IMG/VR virus record: IMGVR_UViG_3300030099_004806 | Coordinates: 1 to 32,270 of that record | DNA length: 32,270 nt | Strand: one strand, 5' to 3' | Origin: a virus | In this document: in pieces, positions 16,806 to 31,589 of the stretch | How the letters are laid out: each line of letters begins with the position of its first letter | Position numbering within the stretch: the first letter of the stretch is position 1 | The notes under the pieces: model-generated | The model's database searches: none | What the model saw: the letters and a program-made list of their open reading frames with translations, nothing else | Told to the model about the DNA's origin: nothing | Translations under genes and position numbers: made by a program

Positions 16806-18644
16806 TTATGATTTTTGCAACTTTCTTATTTTTACCCCAAAGTATGGTGCAAAAATCTTCACAGGCTCTTCTTTCCCTTTAACTTTTATTGTATCAAGCT
16901 GTTTACATTTCATTTCAGAGGGTAACTGAGTATAAGTGTGTTCTGATAAAAGTATTGGAGTGTCGTAGTGTCTAGTTTGTACTTCAAGTCTTGCTCCTAA
17001 ATTAACAGCATCGCCAACTACAGAGTAGTCAAATCTAGATTCACTCCCCATATTTCCAACTATGCAAGGGCCAGTATTAATTCCTGAGCCTATTACTACA
17101 GGAGGCAGATTTAATCCTTTGTCTTTTAATTCCTGATTTAATTGTTCAGTAAGGATTTCTATTTCTATGGCAGATTTTAGTGCCATTTCTGCATGGTTTT
17201 CACATGGTAACGGTGCGTTCCAAAATGCCATGATACAGTCTCCCATATATTTATCAATAGTTCCTCCATTTTTCAGTATAACTTTTGTCATTCTGTCTAA
17301 AAATAAATTTATAAGCTCTACAAGTCCTTCTGGATCGTCTTTTCTCATGTAAGCTTCTGAAATTGGAGTAAATCCTACAATATCTGCAAATAAAAATGTC
17401 ATTTCTTTACGATCGCCACCTAATTTCATAAGTGATGGATCTTTTACAAGCATTTCTACCATATCTGGAGATAGATAAGTGCCAAATTGACCTTTGATTT
17501 GTCGTCTAAGCAAGAATTGTTTTACAAAATTTCTAAAAGTAACAATAGACCAGTAAATAAGTAGTATTAAAATGACTCCACTTACGTCTATCAGTAGTCC
17601 TTGTTGAAAACCATACCATGCTCCATAACCTAAACCACCGATTGTAGCTATAAGTATAGGAACAGAAGCATAAATAGATGCGGCAGCAAAAGCTAGGATC
17701 AATATTCCTAGTGTACCAATGCCTAGCTCTGCCGCTCGAGACCATGATGGCTCAGAAGGACTATCACCCGCGATTAGTCCATGAAGAATATTTGCCTGAA
17801 CCTCATGAGCATACATAGATCCATTTGGAGTAGGCACAGGATTTGCTACTCCTTCTGCTGTTACTCCAAATATTACAAAAGTTGCTCCCTGCAATGGGCT
17901 TCTTAAAAACTCTGCTGCTGTTTGTCTATAAAATTTAGTGTTCCACGTAGTCCAAACTCGTGCTCGAGGATCTGTTGTAATGAGTGGATACTCTGGTATT
18001 CTTAACCACTCAACTCCTGTTTCTTGAGTAGATAGTTGATAGCTAATGTTCCCGGTAGCTACTCTTAACATCTCAAGTGCAAATGCAGGATATATCTTAT
18101 CGTCTACGTTTACGGCGAGAGGAACTCTTCTTACGACGCCGTCTACTTCTGGTGCGGTTGTTATTAATCCTACTCCTGCGGATTGTTCTGCTAGGGCGGG
18201 TAGTTGTCTTAAAATTCCTGGATACTGAAATAGCCATTCTCTTGGATTTTCTCCTAATGAGGCAGTACCTACATGAGGTCCGCCTTCCGTAGCTTGTGTT
18301 GAAGCTGTGTATGCTAAAATAGTTGGTGTAGTGCTAAGATCATAAGCGAATATATTATCTTCTCGATCTCCTCGTAAATCAGGATCTGGCATTAGTACTG
18401 TAATGCCTGGTATTGCATCTGTTCGTGTAATCAGTTTTCCATAGTAACTACGAGGAATAGGATATCCACCCACTGCTTTTACAAACTCTTCGTCAATATC
18501 TACAAGTACAATCATCTCATCTTGCACCTCTGGTTTTGTTGCCATAAGACTATCAAAAACTTTTAGTTCAAGTATTTGTAAAGGAATTGGATTCCATAGT
18601 AAAATACCTAATAGTCCTAAAGCTGCAAATATTCTTGTTTTCAT
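16806..18644 (-). CDS. CHASE2-domain class III adenylate cyclase
   Basis: A 612-residue membrane enzyme. An N-terminal TM segment is followed by a periplasmic CHASE2-like sensor (residues about 30-300), three TM helices (about 305-375) and a cytoplasmic class III cyclase domain. Catalytic features: TFLFADIVGFT (first metal Asp), GTIDKYMGDCIMAFWNAP (the Lys expected for adenine recognition and second metal Asp), and VVGDAVNLGARLE (Asp, Asn and Arg of the transition-state set). It should make cAMP from ATP; the Lys-Asp pair favours adenylate over guanylate. The gene is ATGA-coupled to the secreted-protein gene before it. I recall FecR-domain proteins being frequent neighbours of CHASE2 cyclases in bacteria, as here. 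A membrane sensor cyclase in a phage structural operon is very unusual. Confidence 0.93.
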   Translation of the reverse strand: MKTRIFAALGLLGILLWNPIPLQILELKVFDSLMATKPEVQDEMIVLVDIDEEFVKAVGGYPIPRSYYGKLITRTDAIPGITVLMPDPDLRGDREDNIFAYDLSTTPTILAYTASTQATEGGPHVGTASLGENPREWLFQYPGILRQLPALAEQSAGVGLITTAPEVDGVVRRVPLAVNVDDKIYPAFALEMLRVATGNISYQLSTQETGVEWLRIPEYPLITTDPRARVWTTWNTKFYRQTAAEFLRSPLQGATFVIFGVTAEGVANPVPTPNGSMYAHEVQANILHGLIAGDSPSEPSWSRAAELGIGTLGILILAFAAASIYASVPILIATIGGLGYGAWYGFQQGLLIDVSGVILILLIYWSIVTFRNFVKQFLLRRQIKGQFGTYLSPDMVEMLVKDPSLMKLGGDRKEMTFLFADIVGFTPISEAYMRKDDPEGLVELINLFLDRMTKVILKNGGTIDKYMGDCIMAFWNAPLPCENHAEMALKSAIEIEILTEQLNQELKDKGLNLPPVVIGSGINTGPCIVGNMGSESRFDYSVVGDAVNLGARLEVQTRHYDTPILLSEHTYTQLPSEMKCKQLDTIKVKGKEEPVKIFAPYFGVKIRKLQKS

Positions 18645-21728: not shown

Positions 21729-22557
21729 TATTTTCTCCACGAAGTTTGCTATAGTCAAAGTCCCAAACTTCCTTTGCCAGTCCTTGCTGTACTAATCCGT
21801 AAACTGCTGCTTCTATAGCTGCTCGTACTGCATAGGTTACTGGTTCATTATCCGTGCTTCCAGATTCTACTTCAACGAGTTCAGTTCCTAATTCATAGAA
21901 CTTGAAAACGTCTCCACCTTTTGCTGTGGATAATATAGTTTTTGTAGCTGTTACATTTAAGAGTACTTCGCCTGTCTGAACGAGTACAGCTCTAAGGACT
22001 ACAGTTACTTTGTCCTCGCGGTATTGATTCTGCATACCTATTCCTAAGTATCGAGCACCACTTCCGCCTGTCTTTAAATTAGTGTCATATCCTATGACAC
22101 CGCCCTCTAAGATCATACCTGCGTAGAGTAGAGGTTTTAAAATCGTTTTTGCATCTTTTCCACCATTATAACTTTCATAAGTATTTCGCACAAGTTGTCT
22201 TTCTTTTGTAAGAGCATCAAGCCCTGAGCGTTCGACAACTACAAACCAGTTTCCTCTTCCTGCATCTCTCAAAGCTTCGATAAGTATATGAATAGCTCCT
22301 TGAGTGACAGCAGTACTAAAACTAGATATCATATCACTTGGTTTTCTTTGTCCAGTTTCATCACCGAACTTATAGACAGCAACTACTGTTTTCTGATTTG
22401 GTAATGGTAAGTCTAACAGTTGTTGTGCTGCAGTAGGCTCTATAACAGGCCCTTGCTCACAAACAATACCCTTACTACATCCTGTGGCATGTTGAACTCC
22501 GATAGCAGCACAGCCGTTAAGAAATAGTAGTAAAACTAAGCTACGGAGTACAGTCAA
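21709..22557 (-). CDS. csgG: CsgG-like outer-membrane curli secretion lipoprotein
   Basis: Start chosen at TTG 22557, seven bases after a GGAGGG site, giving a lipoprotein signal with lipobox LNGC and lipidated Cys16; a further upstream TTG (22581) gives no better signal. The 282-residue product follows CsgG closely: VAVYKFGDETGQRKP, SSFSTAVTQGA, WFVVVERSGLDAL, ERQLVRNTYE, IGYDTNLKTGGSGARYLGI, VTVVLRAVLVQTGEVL, KTILSTAKGGDVFKF and NEPVTYAVRAAIEAAV. CsgG makes a nonameric pore that exports curli subunits. The two adjacent curlin genes and the CsgF-like gene give it local cargo and partner. Confidence 0.95.
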   Translation of the reverse strand: MTVLRSLVLLLFLNGCAAIGVQHATGCSKGIVCEQGPVIEPTAAQQLLDLPLPNQKTVVAVYKFGDETGQRKPSDMISSFSTAVTQGAIHILIEALRDAGRGNWFVVVERSGLDALTKERQLVRNTYESYNGGKDAKTILKPLLYAGMILEGGVIGYDTNLKTGGSGARYLGIGMQNQYREDKVTVVLRAVLVQTGEVLLNVTATKTILSTAKGGDVFKFYELGTELVEVESGSTDNEPVTYAVRAAIEAAVYGLVQQGLAKEVWDFDYSKLRGENNEEGTD

Positions 22558-24952: not shown

Positions 24953-25243
24953 ATGTCATATAGCAAAACAGAGGAGCAGACGTTGAGAGACAATGCCCCT
25001 ATCACAAAAGAAAAAGCAGAACATTTGGCGAGCCAATTTGGAAAGCCATTGCGTTCTGTAATTTCTAAAGCGGTATCGCTTAAACTTTACGAGAAAGCCA
25101 TTAGGCAGACTGTAAAGGTAACTCACAAAGTCGATCTGGTTCGAGATATCGAAAAAGCGTTGGCAATGCGAAAAGGCGAGCTGGAAGGGTTAGAGAATGG
25201 TCGAGGTACTGCGTTATCTCTACTGCTCATGAATATCCGATAG
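24953..25243 (+). CDS. Small HTH-like DNA-binding protein, paralogue A
   Basis: A 96-residue protein with AEHLASQFGKPLRSVISKAV, a helix-turn-helix-like block, then a linker and VDLVRDIEKALAM. It is clearly homologous to the proteins at 28173 and 29650 along most of its length (AP-I-K-AE-LAS-FG--LRSVISKA; DIEKAL). I have seen this FGK-x-RSVI-x-KL pattern in cyanophage hypotheticals; no function is established. A GAGGAAAC site precedes the ATG. It probably acts as a regulator or nucleoid-associated protein. Confidence 0.8.
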   Translation: MSYSKTEEQTLRDNAPITKEKAEHLASQFGKPLRSVISKAVSLKLYEKAIRQTVKVTHKVDLVRDIEKALAMRKGELEGLENGRGTALSLLLMNIR

Positions 25244-25875: not shown

Positions 25876-26142
25876 ATGAGCGAGATTGAATTGCAGAGAG
25901 AAAGATATCGCAGAAAAAAGCTAATGCAACTTAATAAAAGGCAAAGGAAAATAAATGCACTTATTGAGGATGTGATGGAAACTTCAAGACAATTAAAAAG
26001 AATCGGAGCAACTGAAACAAAGGAACAGAAAGCAAGACGCAAGCAGGTTCTTAAATCCTTGAAGAAAAAGCGATTAAAAATTAATCTTGAAATAAATCAA
26101 TTAAATCCTGTATTTAAAGTTGGCGAGGAGGAAATTCACTAA
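25876..26142 (+). CDS. Basic coiled-coil protein of unknown function
   Basis: An 88-residue, almost entirely helical protein with heptad-like spacing (IELQRERYRRKKLMQLNKRQ, then INALIEDVMETSRQLKRI) and many Lys/Arg/Gln/Glu residues. A perfect TTTAGGAG site precedes the ATG. Its stop overlaps the HAD gene start by one base (TAATG). No domain recognised. Confidence 0.7.
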   Translation: MSEIELQRERYRRKKLMQLNKRQRKINALIEDVMETSRQLKRIGATETKEQKARRKQVLKSLKKKRLKINLEINQLNPVFKVGEEEIH

Positions 26143-26642
26143 TGAATAGGTCGCCACTCCGAAGGGATAACTTGATTTTTATTTTTGATTTGGATGGTAC
26201 TGTTATTGATTCGAGCCATCGGCAAGGCGAAAGTCTTGCCGACTGGTTTCGGATGAATACTAGAGAGAATATTTTAAAAGATGAACCTTTGCCACTAAGC
26301 GAAAAACTATTAGAACTTTATCGCAGAGGCTATCAGATTTTAATTTGTACTTCACGTTCATTAAGCAAAAATGATTATGATTATTTGCATGACATTTTAA
26401 ATATTCCTTATGGGATAAAAATGATTGGCAGAAAAGAAGGCGAGCGTACTCCATCATTTACAATGAAGAAGAAAAAATTATCGTATCTTGAGAACTTTAA
26501 ACACTCAAAGGACAAGATAAAAATTCTCATTGATGATGAAGAAAATAATTTGCTTTCATTCGAGGAACTAGGGGGGAACTGCTTAGGCATGACTCCCCAA
26601 CACGCCAACGAATTTATTGATGTTGTGCTTATGGATAAATGA
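26142..26642 (+). CDS. HAD-superfamily phosphatase
   Basis: A 166-residue protein with HAD motif I FIFDLDGTVIDSS (nucleophile Asp16, Asp18), motif II ILICTSRS, a basic residue region (RKEGERTPSFTMKKKK) and motif IV ILIDDEENN. The size and layout resemble the phosphatase domain of phage polynucleotide kinase (PseT) or small acid-phosphatase-like HAD proteins, without the kinase part. The substrate is unknown; end-healing of DNA or RNA, or nucleotide dephosphorylation, are plausible. It is co-transcribed with the coiled-coil gene and followed by a strong terminator. Confidence 0.85.
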   Translation: MNRSPLRRDNLIFIFDLDGTVIDSSHRQGESLADWFRMNTRENILKDEPLPLSEKLLELYRRGYQILICTSRSLSKNDYDYLHDILNIPYGIKMIGRKEGERTPSFTMKKKKLSYLENFKHSKDKIKILIDDEENNLLSFEELGGNCLGMTPQHANEFIDVVLMDK

Positions 26643-26699: not shown

Positions 26700-26888
26700 A
26701 TGTTAAATAAAATATTAATTATAACTATGACTGGAGGGATTTTAGGCTTTACTGCTCTTGCTTGCTTTCATGGTTCTATCATGTTGGGCAGAGATTGGAT
26801 TGCGGTCGTGGATGTCGCTATTCTCTTTCTATCTGGAGTCATTGCTGGCTTATTACTCAACTCCCTTATAACTGAGGTCGTACAATGA
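26700..26888 (+). CDS. Small two-TM membrane protein
   Basis: A 62-residue protein with two hydrophobic helices (ILIITMTGGILGFTALACFH and VVDVAILFLSGVIAGLLLNS) linked by a short charged loop. A TTAGGAGAAAAATATA site precedes the ATG. Its stop overlaps the next gene as ATGA. The helical hairpin fits a class II-type holin, an antiholin or an envelope-acting early protein; the sequence does not decide between them. Confidence 0.65.
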   Translation: MLNKILIITMTGGILGFTALACFHGSIMLGRDWIAVVDVAILFLSGVIAGLLLNSLITEVVQ

Positions 26889-27196
26889 ACTGGCTAACTT
26901 CTCTCGGAACTTTCGAAACGATTATTTATATTCTAGCTTTTCATTTTATCTTTTTTGGTCTTGCATACATTTGCTTTAAACAAGAAGATAAAATTGTTAT
27001 GGCAAGGAAAATTAATAAGGCAAAGAAAAAAATTAAAGCTGATTCAATCGGTCGTGCTAGTCGCTCAGACTTTGCAAAGCAAGAATGGGCAAATTTAGCA
27101 AGGCAAACAGATTTGCCACGATTTCGAAATGATCCTGTCTTTTCTGATAAAATTGTGAGGGATATCGAAAGGACGATAAAAAAACGAACCTCCTAA
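26885..27196 (+). CDS. Membrane-anchored protein of unknown function
   Basis: A 103-residue protein with an N-terminal TM segment (ETIIYILAFHFIFFGLAYIC) and a basic cytoplasmic domain (ARKINKAKKKIKADSI, then EWANLARQTDLPRFRNDPVF). It is translationally coupled to the two-TM protein, so the pair probably works together in the inner membrane. No family recognised. Confidence 0.65.
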   Translation: MNWLTSLGTFETIIYILAFHFIFFGLAYICFKQEDKIVMARKINKAKKKIKADSIGRASRSDFAKQEWANLARQTDLPRFRNDPVFSDKIVRDIERTIKKRTS

Positions 27197-27200
27197 GGGG

Positions 27201-27260
27201 AATCCGCTCAGGTTTATTTAGTTGGGCGAACTGCAAGGGAACTTGGGCGGATTTCTTTTT
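27201..27260 (+). terminator. Multi-branched hairpin terminator
   Basis: An outer stem AATCCGC (27201-27207) / GCGGATT (27247-27253) encloses two small hairpins, AGTT-gggcg-AACT and CAAG-ggaa-CTTG, and is followed by TTCTTTTTC. Five bases after the membrane-protein stop, it can terminate the operon, but the branched loop is more elaborate than a normal terminator. Confidence 0.6.
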
Positions 27261-27324
27261 CTAAAAATTGGATGAGCAATATCGCTCTAACTTAATACGC
27301 AACCAACAAAAATCCAATTTTATT

Positions 27325-27359
27325 GGGGCTGTTCAATTTTTGAACAGCCCCATTTTTTT
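27325..27359 (+). terminator. Strong rho-independent terminator
   Basis: GGGGCTGTTCA, five-base loop, TGAACAGCCCC (11 bp, perfect) followed by ATTTTTTT. On the minus strand the following bases are less T-rich, so the main direction is plus, although it would also hinder leftward transcripts. Confidence 0.9.
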
Positions 27360-27367
27360 GGGCAAAA

Positions 27368-27396
27368 TTCCAAATGAGAATCATTCTCATTTGGAA
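27368..27396. promoter_or_regulatory. Fur-box-like palindrome 1
   Basis: A perfect 29-bp palindrome, 14-1-14, with core TGAGAATCATTCTCA. This fits the 7-1-7 Fur operator (TGATAATnATTATCA) with only the T-to-G change that is common in natural sites. It lies between a terminator and the promoters at 27448-27582. Confidence 0.7.
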
Positions 27397-27447
27397 AAAA
27401 ATTTGAAAAAAAGACTTGACAATTTCGAAAAATTGTGCCTCGAAAAA

Positions 27448-27476
27448 TTGACAGGCTTGACTTTGCGGTTTAAAAT
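27448..27476 (+). promoter_or_regulatory. Rightward promoter overlapping a palindrome
   Basis: TTGACA, 17-bp spacer, TAAAAT. The -10 lies inside a perfect 13-3-13 inverted repeat (27467-27495, arms GGTTTAAAATTAC/GTAATTTTAAACC) that spans -10 to about +12, an ideal operator position. The downstream gene is at 27648. Confidence 0.65.
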
Positions 27477-27495
27477 TACGAAGTAATTTTAAACC
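27467..27495. repeat. Perfect 13-bp inverted repeat with GAA loop
   Basis: GGTTTAAAATTAC GAA GTAATTTTAAACC. It could be a DNA operator for a dimeric repressor or an RNA hairpin. No U-run follows, so it is not a terminator. It is unrelated in sequence to the Fur-like palindromes. Confidence 0.75.
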
Positions 27496-27520
27496 ACGTC
27501 TGTTTAAGAAACCCAAAAGC

Positions 27521-27543
27521 CAAATGAGAATCATTCTCATTTG
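27521..27543. promoter_or_regulatory. Fur-box-like palindrome 2
   Basis: A perfect 11-1-11 palindrome (CAAATGAGAAT C ATTCTCATTTG), identical in core to palindrome 1. It begins about three bases after the predicted start of the leftward promoter at 27553-27582 and lies about 40-60 bases inside the transcript of the rightward promoter, so a bound repressor would block the former directly. Confidence 0.72.
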
Positions 27544-27552
27544 ACCGCGCCG

Positions 27553-27582
27553 ATTTTACCATGCCGAAATATATTTTGTCAA
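27553..27582 (-). promoter_or_regulatory. Leftward promoter with Fur-like operator
   Basis: Minus strand TTGACA, 18-bp spacer, TAAAAT, followed by CGGCGCGG and then Fur-like palindrome 2. No credible leftward gene follows before the terminator at 27325, so the product may be a short RNA. Confidence 0.6.
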
Positions 27583-27647
27583 CATTTTTCGAAAAAATAA
27601 TTTCGAAATTTCTTGCATTGGTCTGCTAAAAATGAGAAGATAAGCAC

Positions 27648-27851
27648 ATGGAAATATTTAAAAGAAAAAAATATATATACACAGAATACGAAGATAAGCA
27701 TATTGTGAATCTTGAGGAAGCCAACGTGCCTTATGAAATTCGAGAGGAAATTGCATTTCTTGAAATGCTGAAAAAAGGTTATCTCTCTATTTCGGTAATT
27801 GGCGAATTGCTTGTTGTATTCGGTTTGATTTGGGTATTTTTCATTAACTAA
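27648..27851 (+). CDS. Small tail-anchored membrane protein
   Basis: A 67-residue protein with a charged, helical N-terminal half (YEDKHIVNLEEANVPYEIRE) and a C-terminal TM segment (SISVIGELLVVFGLIWVFFI) ending FIN. The ribosome site (GAGAAGATAAGC) is modest. It is the only plausible plus-strand gene in the regulatory island and lies downstream of the Fur-like box 2 promoter region. Function unknown. Confidence 0.6.
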   Translation: MEIFKRKKYIYTEYEDKHIVNLEEANVPYEIREEIAFLEMLKKGYLSISVIGELLVVFGLIWVFFIN

Positions 27852-27860
27852 GAAAAATAC
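27834..27860. terminator. AT-rich hairpin at gene end
   Basis: GTATTTTTC, nine-base loop that includes the stop codon, GAAAAATAC. The stem is 9 bp but AT-rich, with no clear U-run, so this is a weak or bidirectional terminator at best. Confidence 0.35.
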
Positions 27861-27919
27861 TCTATAGCCATTTTTTGAAAAGACTGCGAGAAAGGGACGA
27901 GGCTGGGCGACGTTTTCTA

Positions 27920-27938
27920 AATGAGAATGATTCTCACT
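27920..27938. promoter_or_regulatory. Fur-box-like palindrome 3
   Basis: Core TGAGAATGATTCTCA (27922-27936), a perfect 7-1-7 palindrome with slightly less symmetric flanks. It lies in the 3' part of the leftward transcript predicted from 28095-28123, with no promoter recognised immediately next to it. Confidence 0.65.
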
Positions 27939-27985
27939 TGAGGTTACTGTATTACTACACTAACACACCAGCACAGCGTCAGAGG

Positions 27986-28029
27986 GGCGCAGGCACTGCG
28001 CCAAAGTGCGAAAGTGAAGTGTGAAAGCG
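27986..28029 (-). repeat. GC-rich hairpin repeat, copy 1
   Basis: Read on the minus strand: an ACTTC-ACTTT-CGCACTTTGGCGC segment followed by a GGCGCA/TGCGCC hairpin. It is one of three copies of a roughly 40-base unit (others at 28032-28074 and 28722-28763). The unit is much richer in GC than the phage genes and is non-coding. Confidence 0.65.
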
Positions 28030-28031
28030 AA

Positions 28032-28074
28032 GGCGCTCTGCGCCAAAGTGCGAAAGTGAAGTGCAAAAATGAAG
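28032..28074 (-). repeat. GC-rich hairpin repeat, copy 2
   Basis: Same unit as copy 1: a TTGCACTTC tract, CGCACTTTGGCGC and a GGCGC/GCGCC hairpin with a three-base loop. It begins about 15 bases after the start predicted from the promoter at 28095-28123, together with a GCCGC-TTC-GCGGC hairpin. Confidence 0.65.
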
Positions 28075-28094
28075 TCTGCCGCGAAGCGGCGCCG

Positions 28095-28123
28095 ATTATA
28101 CCACAAATCTCTCAGAAAGTCAA
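28095..28123 (-). promoter_or_regulatory. Leftward sigma70 promoter into non-coding repeats
   Basis: TTGACT, 17-bp spacer, TATAAT on the minus strand, with the shared GTGGTATAATCGGCGC context. The predicted RNA (over 200 bases) carries repeats 1 and 2, several hairpins and Fur-like box 3 but no open frame of note. Confidence 0.8.
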
Positions 28124-28135
28124 GTAATTTTTGCA

Positions 28136-28164
28136 CAAAAAAGGGAAGTTTTTTAAACTTCCCT
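28136..28164 (-). terminator. Terminator of HTH gene B
   Basis: Minus strand AGGGAAGTT, five-base loop, AACTTCCCT, then TTTTTTG. It is nine bases past the stop codon of the HTH gene, which makes that gene monocistronic. Confidence 0.9.
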
Positions 28165-28172
28165 AGTCTGTC

Positions 28173-28460
28173 CTAGGATACTGCGTCAAGCAGTGTCGCT
28201 AGGTCTTTGGCATTAGCATTAACTAAACTGTGTGCGTTGATACCTAAAGCCTTCTCGATGTCTTTGACTATCTGAGCTTTGAGAACTTTGGGCTGAGCCT
28301 TTGTTCTTTCTTCTTTGATATACTCAACTTGCATGTTGATTGCTTTGCTGATTACTGACCTTAAAGTTACGCCAAATTCTGATGCTAATTTCTCCGCCAC
28401 TGCTTTATCGATAGGGGCAGCGTCCCTGATTTTTTGCTCTTGTATGCTAGTGTATGCCAT
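28173..28460 (-). CDS. Small HTH-like DNA-binding protein, paralogue B
   Basis: A 95-residue protein, closely related to the 24953 product: MAYTSIQEQKIRDAAPIDKA, AEKLASEFGVTLRSVISKAI, VKDIEKALGI, then an extra KDLATLLDAV end also seen in the 29650 protein. It has its own consensus promoter, a GGAG ribosome site and a terminator, on the strand opposite to its paralogues. The 5' leader contains a hairpin (GATTcGGGA-atag-TCCCaAATC) just before the ribosome site. Monocistronic control, together with the two paralogues, suggests a phage regulator; a targeted site is not identified. Confidence 0.8.
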   Translation of the reverse strand: MAYTSIQEQKIRDAAPIDKAVAEKLASEFGVTLRSVISKAINMQVEYIKEERTKAQPKVLKAQIVKDIEKALGINAHSLVNANAKDLATLLDAVS

Positions 28461-28508
28461 TGTTGATTCTCCATTTTGATTTGGGACTATTCCCGAATCG
28501 ATAAAAGA

Positions 28509-28537
28509 ATTATAGGGGCAAAAAGGAAAAAAGTCAA
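28509..28537 (-). promoter_or_regulatory. Promoter of HTH gene B
   Basis: TTGACT, 17-bp spacer, TATAAT on the minus strand, preceded by CAAAATTTTTC. The start is predicted near 28502, with a leader of about 40 bases before the ATG at 28460. Confidence 0.88.
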
Positions 28538-28590
28538 GAAAAATTTTGCACTACTGCGGCAAATAATGTCGCAGGACCTGAGGCGCGCCG

Positions 28591-28619
28591 ATTATACCAC
28601 AGAAACCCAAAAAAGTCAA
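28591..28619 (-). promoter_or_regulatory. Second leftward promoter upstream of HTH gene B
   Basis: TTGACT, 17-bp spacer, TATAAT, with the same upstream AAAATTTTTC and GTGGTATAATCGGCGC context as its neighbours. It is in tandem with 28509-28537 and 82 bases upstream; it could add to hth B transcription or make a short GC-rich RNA. Confidence 0.8.
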
Positions 28620-28690
28620 GAAAAATTTTGCGAAAAATAGAAAAAACTTATAATTAACGAGTCTCCGCTGATAAATTTGTATAGATTGGC

Positions 28691-28716
28691 GCAAATGGCT
28701 TTGCAAAGCCGTTTGC
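28691..28716. repeat. 26-bp near-perfect palindrome
   Basis: GCAAATGGCTTTGCAAAGCCGTTTGC on the plus strand when read as two 13-base halves (GCAAATGGCTTTG / CAAAGCCGTTTGC): one T/G mismatch that is a wobble pair in RNA. It lies in the leader of the promoter at 28787-28815. Confidence 0.7.
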
Positions 28717-28721
28717 AGAAG

Positions 28722-28763
28722 GGCGCGCTCCGCGCCAAAGTGCAAAAACGAAGTGCAAAACTG
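28722..28763 (-). repeat. GC-rich hairpin repeat, copy 3
   Basis: Minus strand: TTTTGCACTTC, TTTTTGCACTTTGGCGC and a GGCGCG-GAG-CGCGCC hairpin. It matches copies 1 and 2 some 700 bases away, again at the 5' end of a leftward promoter transcript. Confidence 0.65.
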
Positions 28764-28786
28764 ATGCCGTGCCCACATAAGTGCGG

Positions 28787-28815
28787 ATTATACCACAAAA
28801 CGCTAGATAAGTCAA
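28787..28815 (-). promoter_or_regulatory. Leftward promoter before repeat copy 3
   Basis: TTGACT, 17-bp spacer, TATAAT, then CCGCAC. The transcript begins with repeat copy 3 and the 26-bp palindrome. A 75-codon frame (28551-28778) starts near the 5' end but its content is dictated by the repeats and AT-rich promoter DNA, so I do not call it a gene. Confidence 0.78.
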
Positions 28816-28819
28816 GATA

Positions 28820-28955
28820 AATTTGCTTAAATTGACATAAATTATCGTAAATTTCTGCGTAGCAGAACGATTACGCGTGCCGCCCCTCGGAGGTCGTTTG
28901 CGTGAGTAGTCCGACTAAAAGTTTTTAAAAGTATTTTGTGTAATGAAGTAAATTT
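28820..28955. other. Gap between leftward and rightward promoters
   Basis: No gene. Apart from a GC-rich patch around 28870-28912 (ACGCGTGCCGCCCCTCGGAG), I see only AT-rich DNA separating the leftward promoters from the rightward one at 28959. Confidence 0.4.
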
Positions 28956-28958
28956 TTG

Positions 28959-28987
28959 TTGACATTCGATGCCTTTGCTTTCATAAT
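28959..28987 (+). promoter_or_regulatory. Rightward sigma70 promoter
   Basis: TTGACA, 17-bp spacer, CATAAT. It starts the rightward cluster 29045-29593, about 50 bases before the first ATG. Confidence 0.82.
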
Positions 28988-29649: not shown

Positions 29650-30006
29650 ATGAAATTCACAGACATAATTAATAAATTAAGGAGAAAACCAGAAGTGGCA
29701 ACAACAACTAATTATACAGATGAACAAGTAGAACAAATGGTTAGCATATATAAAGCTGACCCAACAAGAGCAACAGTCGATGCTCTGGCAGAAAAGTTCG
29801 GTAAAAGTGCGAGAAGCATCATTGCCAAACTAAGTAGAGAAGGCGTATACGTCGCTCAACAAAGGCAGACCAAAGCAGGGAAACCTGTGGTCAGAAAGTC
29901 GGACTTAGTAGGAATGATACAACAGGAGTTAGGGGCTGAGTTTCCAACTCTAGTCAAGGCTTCCAAGACTGACTTAGAACTTTTATTCGCAGCAGTACAG
30001 TCGTAG
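29650..30006 (+). CDS. Small HTH-like DNA-binding protein, paralogue C
   Basis: A 118-residue protein, the longest of the three paralogues, with an extra N-terminal 20 residues, then YTDEQVEQMVSIYKADPTRA, VDALAEKFGKSARSIIAKLS, REGVYVAQQRQTKAGKPVVR and a C-terminal SDLVGMIQQELGAEFPTLVK. The FGKSARSIIAKLxREGVY block resembles conserved cyanophage and pelagiphage hypotheticals. Lacking a ribosome site, it probably starts from a leaderless transcript. It precedes the structured region at 30007. Confidence 0.8.
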   Translation: MKFTDIINKLRRKPEVATTTNYTDEQVEQMVSIYKADPTRATVDALAEKFGKSARSIIAKLSREGVYVAQQRQTKAGKPVVRKSDLVGMIQQELGAEFPTLVKASKTDLELLFAAVQS

Positions 30007-30887: not shown

Positions 30888-30952
30888 GAATAGCGTTAGT
30901 AATTATTCTAATTCTGTGGATTATGTTTAACAATACAAATGGGAGATACTAA
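30878..30952 (+). CDS. 24-residue membrane micro-protein
   Basis: ATG at 30878 inside the end of the previous gene; MELGIALVIILILWIMFNNT is one short TM helix with a polar C-terminus. It ends one base before the polyphosphate kinase ATG. Too short for certainty, but the spacing suits translational coupling. Confidence 0.45.
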   Translation: MELGIALVIILILWIMFNNTNGRY

Positions 30953-30953
30953 T

Positions 30954-31589
30954 ATGACAAAACTAGAACTACAACAAGTATTACTCAACGAGATAGTTGA
31001 GAAAGATTTTGGACGTGTAGCTGTAATACTAGAAGGTAGAGACACAGCAGGTAAGTCGGGAACTATTCGTGAGTTGACGCACTATCTACCAACAAATAAG
31101 TACTCCGTTTCGTTAAGCAACAAACCAAGTGCTTGGGCTATGAAACATTGGCTTAAGTCTTGGAAAAAGAAGTTGCCTAGCAATAATCAAATCGTATTCT
31201 TTGACAGAAGTTGGTATTCAAGAGCAATGGTTCAGCATCTAAATGGCTGGTGCTCTGAGAAACAATACACCAAGTTTATGAAAGAAGTAAACGAGTGGGA
31301 AAACAAACAGAGAGATGTAACATTCATCAAGCTATGGCTTTCAATCTCTGAGGAAGAACAGGGTGCAAGACTTGCTAACAGACAAGTATGCCCTTTGAAG
31401 AAGTGGAAGTTCTCCCCAAATGATGCGATTGCGTTATCAAAGTATGACCAGATGACTATTCTAAAAGAACGAGTCCTTACACAATGTGGCGAGTGGCATA
31501 CAATAGATTACAATAATAAAGTTGCTGGGCGACTATCTTTAATAACTAAAGTAGTAGATATACTAAGGAGAGAACATGAAGGTATATGA
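30954..31589 (+). CDS. ppk2: Polyphosphate kinase 2 family protein
   Basis: Start chosen at 30954, eight bases after a GGGAGA site, rather than 30939. The 211-residue product shows the PPK2 pattern: Walker A VAVILEGRDTAGKSGTIREL (residues about 22-41), Walker B IVFFDRSWYSRAMVQ (about 80-94), FIKLWLSISEEEQGARLANR (lid region with Arg/Lys) and PLKKWKFSPNDAIALSKYDQ. PPK2 enzymes transfer phosphate between polyphosphate and nucleoside mono- or diphosphates. In a phage it could use host polyphosphate to raise NDP or NTP pools; the substrate preference cannot be read here. It is shorter than typical PPK2 (about 230-300 residues) but the core is present. Confidence 0.88.
   Translation: MTKLELQQVLLNEIVEKDFGRVAVILEGRDTAGKSGTIRELTHYLPTNKYSVSLSNKPSAWAMKHWLKSWKKKLPSNNQIVFFDRSWYSRAMVQHLNGWCSEKQYTKFMKEVNEWENKQRDVTFIKLWLSISEEEQGARLANRQVCPLKKWKFSPNDAIALSKYDQMTILKERVLTQCGEWHTIDYNNKVAGRLSLITKVVDILRREHEGI

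What the first reader, a model, noticed from the sequence alone, without database searches (positions are those of the whole stretch)
27201..28960. Promoter-rich, gene-poor island with leftward promoters that lead to no gene
In about 1.7 kb there are only two credible genes but at least five near-consensus leftward promoters (27553, 28095, 28509, 28591, 28787). Three of them transcribe GC-rich hairpin DNA with no plausible open frame. Their cores share GGTATAATCGGCGC or close variants. Possible roles are regulatory RNAs, decoy promoters that titrate host RNA polymerase, or host-derived DNA.
Basis: partly seen in the sequence, partly recalled or inferred. Interest (0 to 1): 0.72.

Follow-up and report, generated by a model that had tools for sequence, protein, structure and literature searches.

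The report
Antisense promoter-hairpin modules in T5-like phages
The leftward promoters are real and belong to a previously unnoticed, phage-specific DNA module (a strong promoter with a fixed GGCGC start region and a hairpin at the start point) that is repeated, always in the same direction and nearly always facing the ends of genes, next to the late-gene block of T5-like phages, where it may control early transcription or the entry of the phage DNA.

Summary
In detail: five leftward sigma-70 promoters (11 of 12 consensus bases) lie in 1.76 kb, against 0.02 expected. Relatives keep four of them wherever their contigs reach.

"No gene" is only half right. P28787, P28591 and P28509 read into the 95-aa gene 28173-28460. 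P28095 and P27553 face the 3' ends of rightward genes.

The window is a fragment of an uncultured T5-like phage. Window 27521-27551 (palindrome plus GCGCC) is identical to a sequence in cultured T5-like phages. There it lies near the right end of the long terminal repeat, at the gene-free injection-stop region.

P27553 is one copy of a recurrent module: TTGACA-N16..18-TGNTAWAAT-YGGCGC with a hairpin at the start point. I found 184 copies in 108 viral loci, none in 398 bacterial genomes, and none with a permuted discriminator. All 58 copies that could be placed are on the terminase strand, 1.9-16.5 kb upstream of it. 90% are antisense to the next gene, whose stop codon is about 80 nt away.

Best reading: polar, cis-acting antisense barriers at the ends of pre-early genes, possibly part of the injection-stop zone. 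Anatomy and family are shown; function is inferred (about 0.4). Host-derived DNA is rejected; decoy and trans-acting sRNA readings are disfavoured.

The parts
27553..27582 (-). Antisense promoter P27553: TTGACA-18-TAAAAT with extended -10 (TG)
   Evidence: conserved in L008, L012, L013; family motif
27547..27552 (-). Discriminator CGGCGC at the start point (GGCGCGG continues to 27545; resembles the T5 nick consensus R/GCGCRGG)
   Evidence: PMC3517423 for the nick consensus
27521..27543 (.). 23-bp palindrome CAAATGAGAATCATTCTCATTTG at +1 of P27553; 27521-27551 is identical to cultured T5-like phages
27371..27394 (.). Second copy of the palindrome, 19 nt after the rightward terminator
27919..27940 (.). 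Third copy of the palindrome, about 70 nt after the stop codon of 27648-27851
27324..27352 (+). Intrinsic terminator of the rightward gene block (13-bp stem, T7 tract)
27448..27495 (+). Rightward promoter TTGACA-17-TAAAAT overlapping the dyad GGTTTAAAATTAC-GAA-GTAATTTTAAACC; presumably for 27648-27851
27648..27851 (+). 67-aa gene with a hydrophobic C-terminal stretch, function unknown; faced by P28095
28095..28123 (-). Antisense promoter P28095: TTGACT-17-TATAAT, discriminator CGGCGC
27990..28090 (-). GC-rich leader of P28095: hairpin GCCGCTTCGCGGC at the start, then CACTTCACTTTCGCACTTTGGCGC repeats (107-nt repeat shared with 28725-28831)
28142..28164 (-). Intrinsic terminator of gene 28173-28460 (10-bp stem, T tract)
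   Evidence: kept in all five aligned sequences with small changes
28173..28460 (-). 95-aa gene, similar in sequence to 24953-25243 (+) by eye; weak phrog_323 'D5-like regulator' match (E 0.019)
28509..28537 (-). P28509: ordinary promoter of gene 28173-28460 (AT-rich discriminator)
28551..28619 (-). P28591 (28591-28619) with discriminator CGGCGC and a short hairpin; part of an 82-bp unit present in the window and L014 only
28691..28815 (-). P28787 (28787-28815) with GC-rich leader and hairpins (28691-28716; GGCGCGGAGCGCGCC); reads toward 28173-28460
28959..28987 (+). Rightward promoter TTGACA-17-CATAAT that opens the block of genes from 29045

Best explanation
The island is the gene-poor zone at the right end of the pre-early block of a T5-like phage, the counterpart of the T5 injection-stop / terminal-repeat-end region. 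P27553, P28095 and P28591 belong to a family of polar antisense modules: a strong host-sigma-70 promoter, a GC-rich YGGCGC discriminator that sets it apart from the phage's AT-rich (ATA) promoters, and a hairpin or palindrome at the start point. A module typically stands just past the stop codon (and sometimes the terminator) of a rightward gene and fires back at it. I infer that the modules work in cis: RNA polymerase loaded there, its short hairpin RNA, and proteins bound to the palindrome form a barrier. The barrier stops or dampens rightward transcription of pre-early genes and keeps it from running on, or from pulling DNA, toward the still-uninjected part of the genome. SHOWN by computation: family, location relative to the terminase, polarity, antisense placement, hairpin selection, phage specificity. 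INFERRED: promoter activity, the cis barrier, any link to the injection stop.
For: T5-like identity: TerL 47-49% identical to T5-type phages, DNA polymerase of relative G001 43%. Homologous place: window 27521-27551 is 31/31 identical to T5-like isolates. In T5_ev219 it lies about 40 nt past the last rightward pre-early gene, before 1.7 kb without genes. In Kenya-K16 it is inside the annotated DTR, 300 nt from its right end. Vibrio phage pVp-1 has the same arrangement. T5's injection-stop zone is described as repeats, palindromes and DnaA boxes (PMC13250531). Module family: 184 elements in 108 loci; 36 of 38 large contigs found by motif or palindrome alone encode a T5-like TerL and/or polymerase. 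Specificity: 0 hits with GCCGGC or CGCGCG in place of GGCGCC, against >=120; 0 in 398 bacterial genomes. Hairpin of >=8 bp at the start point in 72%, against 14% shuffled and 11% upstream. One strand in 43/43 multi-element loci; 58/58 on the TerL strand and upstream of TerL. 155/172 convergent with the next gene, stop codon median 82 nt past GGCGC; sense terminator in between in 30% against 4% shuffled. An engineered gene-terminator-antisense promoter of this layout represses its gene in E. coli (PMC4731013). T5 early and late promoters differ mainly in the discriminator (PMC7472727).
Against: No RNA, binding or genetic data. In 21% of the modules the start-point hairpin is itself an intrinsic terminator (2% in shuffles); such RNAs would not reach the gene, so only RNAP occupancy could act there. 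17 of 172 modules are co-directional with the next gene, including P28591, and P28787 (a variant outside the strict motif) also reads into a gene. Cultured T5-like phages keep the palindrome and GCGCC but no recognisable promoter, so the promoter is not essential to every T5-like phage. The terminal repeat of the window's phage was not observed; its place is inferred by homology. The window island has no DnaA boxes, unlike T5. Placement relative to genes and relative to genome polarity are correlated, so they cannot be fully separated.
Confidence: 0.4

Rival explanations
1. DNA-level anchoring zone: palindromes (Fur-type, parS-type), DnaA boxes and RNAP-bound promoters recruit abundant host DNA-binding proteins that hold the entering DNA at the first-step boundary. 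The promoters serve as RNAP-binding roadblocks and their RNA is irrelevant.
For: In loci fetched by the promoter motif alone, perfect TGAGAATNATTCTCA occurs 14 times (0 expected) and parS TGTTTCACGTGAAACA (<=2 mismatches) 19 times (0.3 expected); those near a module lie at fixed distances of 41-49 and 61-97 nt from the -35. DnaA boxes 85 against 11 expected, mostly in enteric T5-like phages. 82 of 184 promoters have a dyad of >=8 nt across spacer and -10, which lies upstream of the start point and so is not in their own RNA. The published view of the T5 injection stop invokes palindromes, DnaA boxes and host components (PMC13250531).
Against: Most start-point hairpins match no recognised host site. 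Modules are spread over up to 6 kb (L048), not at one stop point. Binding by Fur or ParB was not tested.
Confidence: 0.25
2. Small regulatory RNAs: the modules make abundant hairpin RNAs of about 30-150 nt that act in trans on host or phage mRNAs or proteins.
For: Strong promoters, hairpins at +1 and terminator-like ends in 21%; GC-rich leader repeats conserved in the window's relatives.
Against: Hairpin sequences differ widely between modules while position and strand are fixed; a trans role needs neither. No Rfam family reached its gathering score.
Confidence: 0.15
3. Iron (Fur)-repressed promoters: the palindrome at +1 is a true Fur operator, so the antisense transcript is made only when host iron is low, tuning early genes to host iron status (T5's receptor FhuA is itself Fur-regulated).
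For: TGAGAATNATTCTCA is a perfect 7-1-7 inverted repeat of the Fur-box type (consensus in PMC6922518) placed exactly over the start point of P27553.
Against: Many modules have unrelated hairpins, and some palindromes lose the Fur core while keeping the stem (AAATGAGAACGATTCTCATTT in L099). Two of the three window copies have no promoter beside them. The host is unknown.
Confidence: 0.12
4. The GGCGC is primarily a strand-specific nick site (T5 consensus R/GCGCRGG), and the promoter and hairpin serve nicking, repeat duplication or packaging.
For: The T5 nick consensus begins R/GCGC and nicks lie on one strand only (PMC3517423); the elements are on one strand and on the terminal-repeat side of the terminase; GGCGCGG is kept at P27553 and in cultured T5-like phages.
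Against: Most family members read GGCGCC, which breaks the R after GCGC. A nick site does not need -35 and -10 boxes.
Confidence: 0.07
5. Chance, assembly artefact or captured host DNA.
For: None found beyond the low gene density.
Against: 0.022 promoters expected against 5; five related contigs; 0 of 398 bacterial genomes; no plasmid match.
Confidence: 0.01

Closest known systems
Phage T5 injection-stop signal / right end of the long terminal repeat (Tequintavirus, Demerecviridae)
   Same: Gene-free zone after the last rightward pre-early gene; the identical 31-nt palindrome+GCGCC block; many inverted repeats
   Different: T5 has DnaA boxes and no GGCGC-type antisense promoter there; the window has strong antisense promoters, extra genes (27648, 28173) and no DnaA boxes
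T5 temporal promoter classes (discriminator-defined, gpT5.026)
   Same: Promoter classes differ mainly in the discriminator
   Different: T5 early promoters carry ATATT; the class described here carries YGGCGC and is antisense
Antisense promoters at gene 3' ends, natural and synthetic (terminator plus antisense promoter cassettes)
   Same: Layout gene-terminator-opposing promoter, known to repress by RNAP collision or antisense RNA
   Different: Here repeated, with a conserved discriminator and start-point hairpin, in phages, all in one genome polarity
Fur boxes
   Same: Perfect 7-1-7 inverted repeat TGAGAATNATTCTCA over a promoter start
   Different: Other family members use unrelated hairpins; no binding data

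Membership tests
T5-like phages (Demerecviridae and relatives) | T5-type large terminase and replication proteins | tested here: met
   TerL 47-49% to T5-type isolates; polymerase, helicase, primase, SbcCD and ligase in relative G001, polymerase 43%
T5-like phages (Demerecviridae and relatives) | Long direct terminal repeat holding the pre-early genes | not testable with these tools
   Window is a 32-kb fragment with no end repeats; place inferred from TerL distance and the shared palindrome
T5 injection-stop region | Gene-poor zone after pre-early genes with palindromes and repeats | tested here: met
T5 injection-stop region | DnaA boxes | tested here: not met
   Only one TTATCCACA in the window, at 21925, outside the island
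T5 injection-stop region | DNA transfer pauses there | not testable with these tools
   needs infection experiments
Antisense promoter-hairpin module (defined here) | TTGAC-N16..18-T(G)NTAWAAT-YGGCGC | tested here: met
   P27553, P28095 and P28591 met; P28787 has CCGCAC and P28509 has TTCTTT, so these two are not strict members
Antisense promoter-hairpin module (defined here) | Hairpin starting at the transcription start | tested here: met
   P27553 (23-bp palindrome), P28095 (GCCGCTTCGCGGC); P28591 only a short, weaker one
Antisense promoter-hairpin module (defined here) | Convergent with the next gene | tested here: inconclusive
   Met by P27553 and P28095; not met by P28591 and P28787, which read into 28173-28460
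Fur operator | 7-1-7 inverted repeat | tested here: met
   consensus in PMC6922518
Fur operator | Fur binding and iron response | not testable with these tools
   host unknown
T5 nick site R/GCGCRGG | Full consensus | tested here: not met
   P27553 reads GGCGCGGT (last base differs); most family members read GGCGCC

The most novel reading that the evidence does not exclude
T5-like phages carry a polar array of RNA-polymerase-loading modules and host-protein palindromes (Fur-, ParB- and DnaA-type) in their first-injected DNA that acts as a brake: polymerases loaded by the modules run away from the injection pore and block those running toward it, so that host transcription cannot pull in the genome before the phage permits the second transfer step.
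Probability: 0.15. Interest if true: 0.88.

Novelty: new variant of a known kind. Interest (0 to 1): 0.74.

Why it matters
How T5 stops its DNA entry after 8-9% and switches between its gene classes has been open for decades (PMC13250531 calls the transfer mechanism poorly understood; PMC7472727 says the switching mechanism is unknown). A module conserved across a large uncultured T5-like clade, with fixed polarity, a defining discriminator and a link to the palindrome at the T5 injection-stop region, gives concrete sequences to mutate, bind and map. It also shows a repeated non-coding element that gene-based phage annotation misses.

Tried and rejected
Host-derived island: rejected. tRNA or tmRNA remnants: none by ARAGORN in the window or relatives. 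Known RNA families: nothing near a gathering score. Generic intrinsic terminators: only 21% of start-point hairpins have a T tract, so termination is not the common denominator. Fur regulation as the general explanation: rejected for the family because many modules have unrelated hairpins, kept as a minor rival for P27553. T5 nick site: GGCGC fits only the core. RNAP titration decoy: disfavoured by fixed polarity and placement. Open frames antisense to the gaps (27292-27540, 27960-28136, 28551-28778): low or no coding score in the codon-based call, so not treated as genes. Davison's reviews on T5 injection (PMC4743489, 10.1101/866236) and the 1987 Gene paper are not held, so what they say about this palindrome could not be read; the palindrome in cultured T5 may already be described there. 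A first crude gene caller gave 116 convergent to 49 co-directional; a codon-usage caller gave 155 to 17. A working note says 37 of 38 contigs are T5-like; the correct count is 36 of 38.
Full report
OBSERVATION. All five leftward promoters exist at the stated positions. In 27201-28960 the minus strand holds five promoters with at least 11 of 12 consensus bases; 500 dinucleotide shuffles give 0.022 on average. The core GGTATAATCGGCGC is shared by P28095 and P28591, and with one change by P27553; P28787 has CCGCAC after the -10, and P28509 has an ordinary AT-rich sequence. The title overstates: P28787, P28591 and P28509 are in tandem in front of the 95-aa gene 28173-28460 (-), which ends in a good terminator (28142-28164). 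Only P28095 and P27553 have no gene ahead of them on their strand.

SURROUNDINGS. The window is a virus record. Leftward late genes (tape measure, major tail protein, capsid/protease, portal, terminase) and other leftward genes occupy 17-24312, and rightward small genes follow from 24953. The terminase is 47-49% identical to Vibrio, Providencia and Pectobacterium T5-type phages. A 38-kb relative (G001) carries a T5-like replication set, with a polymerase 43% identical to Vibrio and Aeromonas T5-like phages. The phage is therefore T5-like but uncultured; its host was not identified.

CONSERVATION. Four viral contigs carry the island (alignment A1). P28787, P28509 and P28095 are kept in all, and P27553 in the three contigs that reach it, with changing spacers and constant boxes. 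P28591 sits on an 82-bp unit flanked by exact 23-bp repeats and is present in the window and L014 only. Three perfect palindromes TGAGAATNATTCTCA (27375, 27525, 27922; 0.01 expected) are kept wherever the alignment covers them; only the central base flips C/G.

LINK TO T5. A blastn search of the island against 50,697 phage records returned 152 records, mostly T5-like. The best matches cover only window 27512-27551, with 100% identity over 27521-27551 in many; two Aeromonas phages match the third palindrome instead. In T5_ev219 this sequence follows the last rightward pre-early gene by about 40 nt and opens a 1.7-kb gap without genes. In Salmonella phage Kenya-K16 it lies inside the annotated direct terminal repeat, 300 nt from its end. 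In Vibrio phage pVp-1 it again follows a rightward gene and its terminator and opens a gap. That is the region described as the T5 injection-stop signal: repeats, inverted repeats, palindromes, DnaA boxes (PMC13250531). The window lacks the DnaA boxes. Cultured T5-like phages keep the palindrome and GCGCC but have no promoter reading into it.

A MODULE FAMILY. A scan of IMG/VR for the 23-bp palindrome gave 51 stretches. In many environmental contigs it is preceded, exactly as at P27553, by TTGACA-N-TGNTAAAATYGGCGCC. Two permuted discriminators of the same base composition (GCCGGC, CGCGCG) gave none, and 398 Pseudomonadota genomes gave none. With a slightly relaxed motif I count 184 distinct elements in 108 loci; some come from related contigs, so they are not all independent. 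Of 38 large contigs chosen by motif or palindrome alone, 30 encode a terminase 52-76% identical to the window's and six more a T5-like polymerase, 36 of 38 in all.

ANATOMY OF THE MODULE. The spacing is fixed (18 nt in most, 17 in the rest, whose printed value is one larger). A hairpin of at least 8 bp begins within 12 nt of GGCGC in 72% of elements, against 14% in shuffles and 11% in upstream controls. The hairpins differ widely in sequence, so structure or symmetry is what is kept. In 82 of 184 the spacer and -10 themselves form a dyad of 8 nt or more, a DNA-level feature because it lies upstream of the start point. In 43 of 43 loci with several elements all are on one strand. In 26 contigs where the terminase is present (the window among them), 58 of 58 elements are on the terminase strand and 1.9-16.5 kb upstream of it. 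With a codon-usage gene caller 155 of 172 elements are convergent with the next gene, 120 lie between two tandem genes of the opposite strand, and the stop codon lies a median 82 nt past GGCGC. A sense terminator lies between stop codon and module in 30% (4% shuffled); the start-point hairpin is itself a terminator in 21% (2% shuffled). Loci fetched by the promoter motif alone also contain Fur-type palindromes (14 perfect, 0 expected) and parS-type sites (19 with at most 2 mismatches, 0.3 expected), many at fixed distances downstream of the -35.

INTERPRETATION. Fixed polarity, placement at gene ends and structure-only conservation argue for an action in cis. A terminator followed by an opposing promoter at a gene's 3' end is known to repress that gene in E. 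coli (PMC4731013). In T5 the early and late promoters differ mainly in the discriminator (PMC7472727); here the antisense class is YGGCGC, whereas promoters elsewhere in G001-G004 carry ATA-type discriminators. GC-rich discriminators are typical of stringently controlled rRNA promoters (general knowledge, not tested here). I therefore favour antisense barriers at the ends of pre-early transcription units, perhaps helping to hold transcription, and with it the DNA, at the first-step boundary. The last clause is conjecture.

IN THE WINDOW ITSELF. P27553 is a full module facing 26885-27196 across the terminator at 27324-27352. P28095 is a module with a longer GC-rich leader facing 27648-27851. 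P28591 and P28787 are variants that read into 28173-28460. So the family description fits two of the five promoters fully, P28591 and P28787 partly, and P28509 not at all.

LIMITS. There are no expression or binding data; the terminal repeat of this phage was not seen; the elements were collected by motif, so their frequency in nature is a lower bound; the older T5 literature on the injection stop could not be read here.

Noticed in passing
L044:1186, L054:1679, L115:9412, L143:18/944/1820, L181:6268: Exact bacterial centromere sites (parS, TGTTTCACGTGAAACA) in the same region of environmental T5-like phages, often 60-100 nt downstream of a module's -35; 19 with at most 2 mismatches against 0.3 expected in 0.98 Mb.
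   Followed up: partly
28527-28631: 82-bp promoter+hairpin unit bounded by exact 23-bp repeats, present in the window and L014 but missing from three relatives: recent duplication or loss by repeat recombination.
   Followed up: partly
16806-18644 (-): 612-aa protein 43.6% identical to the adenylate/guanylyl cyclase-annotated protein of Pelagibacter phage HTVC008M; unusual cargo for a T5-like phage.
   Followed up: no
30939-31589 (+): Polyphosphate kinase 2 (PPK2, Pfam E 5e-46) encoded in the block of genes right of the island.
   Followed up: no
26142-26642 (+): HAD-type phosphatase (phrog_415 polynucleotide kinase E 2.5e-15; 5'-3' deoxyribonucleotidase E 1.5e-4), a possible counterpart of the T5 pre-early nucleotidase Dmp.
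   Followed up: no
24953-25243 (+), 28173-28460 (-), 29650-30006 (+): Small proteins with weak matches to the 'D5-like transcriptional regulator' family phrog_323; the first two look like paralogues.
   Followed up: no
L112:1792, L094:1653, L123:10086: In one subgroup the module overlaps an opposing promoter about 30 nt away (face-to-face TTGACA..TATAAT), so two polymerases would collide at once.
   Followed up: no
Phapecoctavirus and other large phage records: Near-copies of the 23-bp palindrome (about 21 nt, 95%) in non-coding or repeat_region stretches of unrelated myophages such as Escherichia phage alia and tuntematon; E-values are weak.
   Followed up: no
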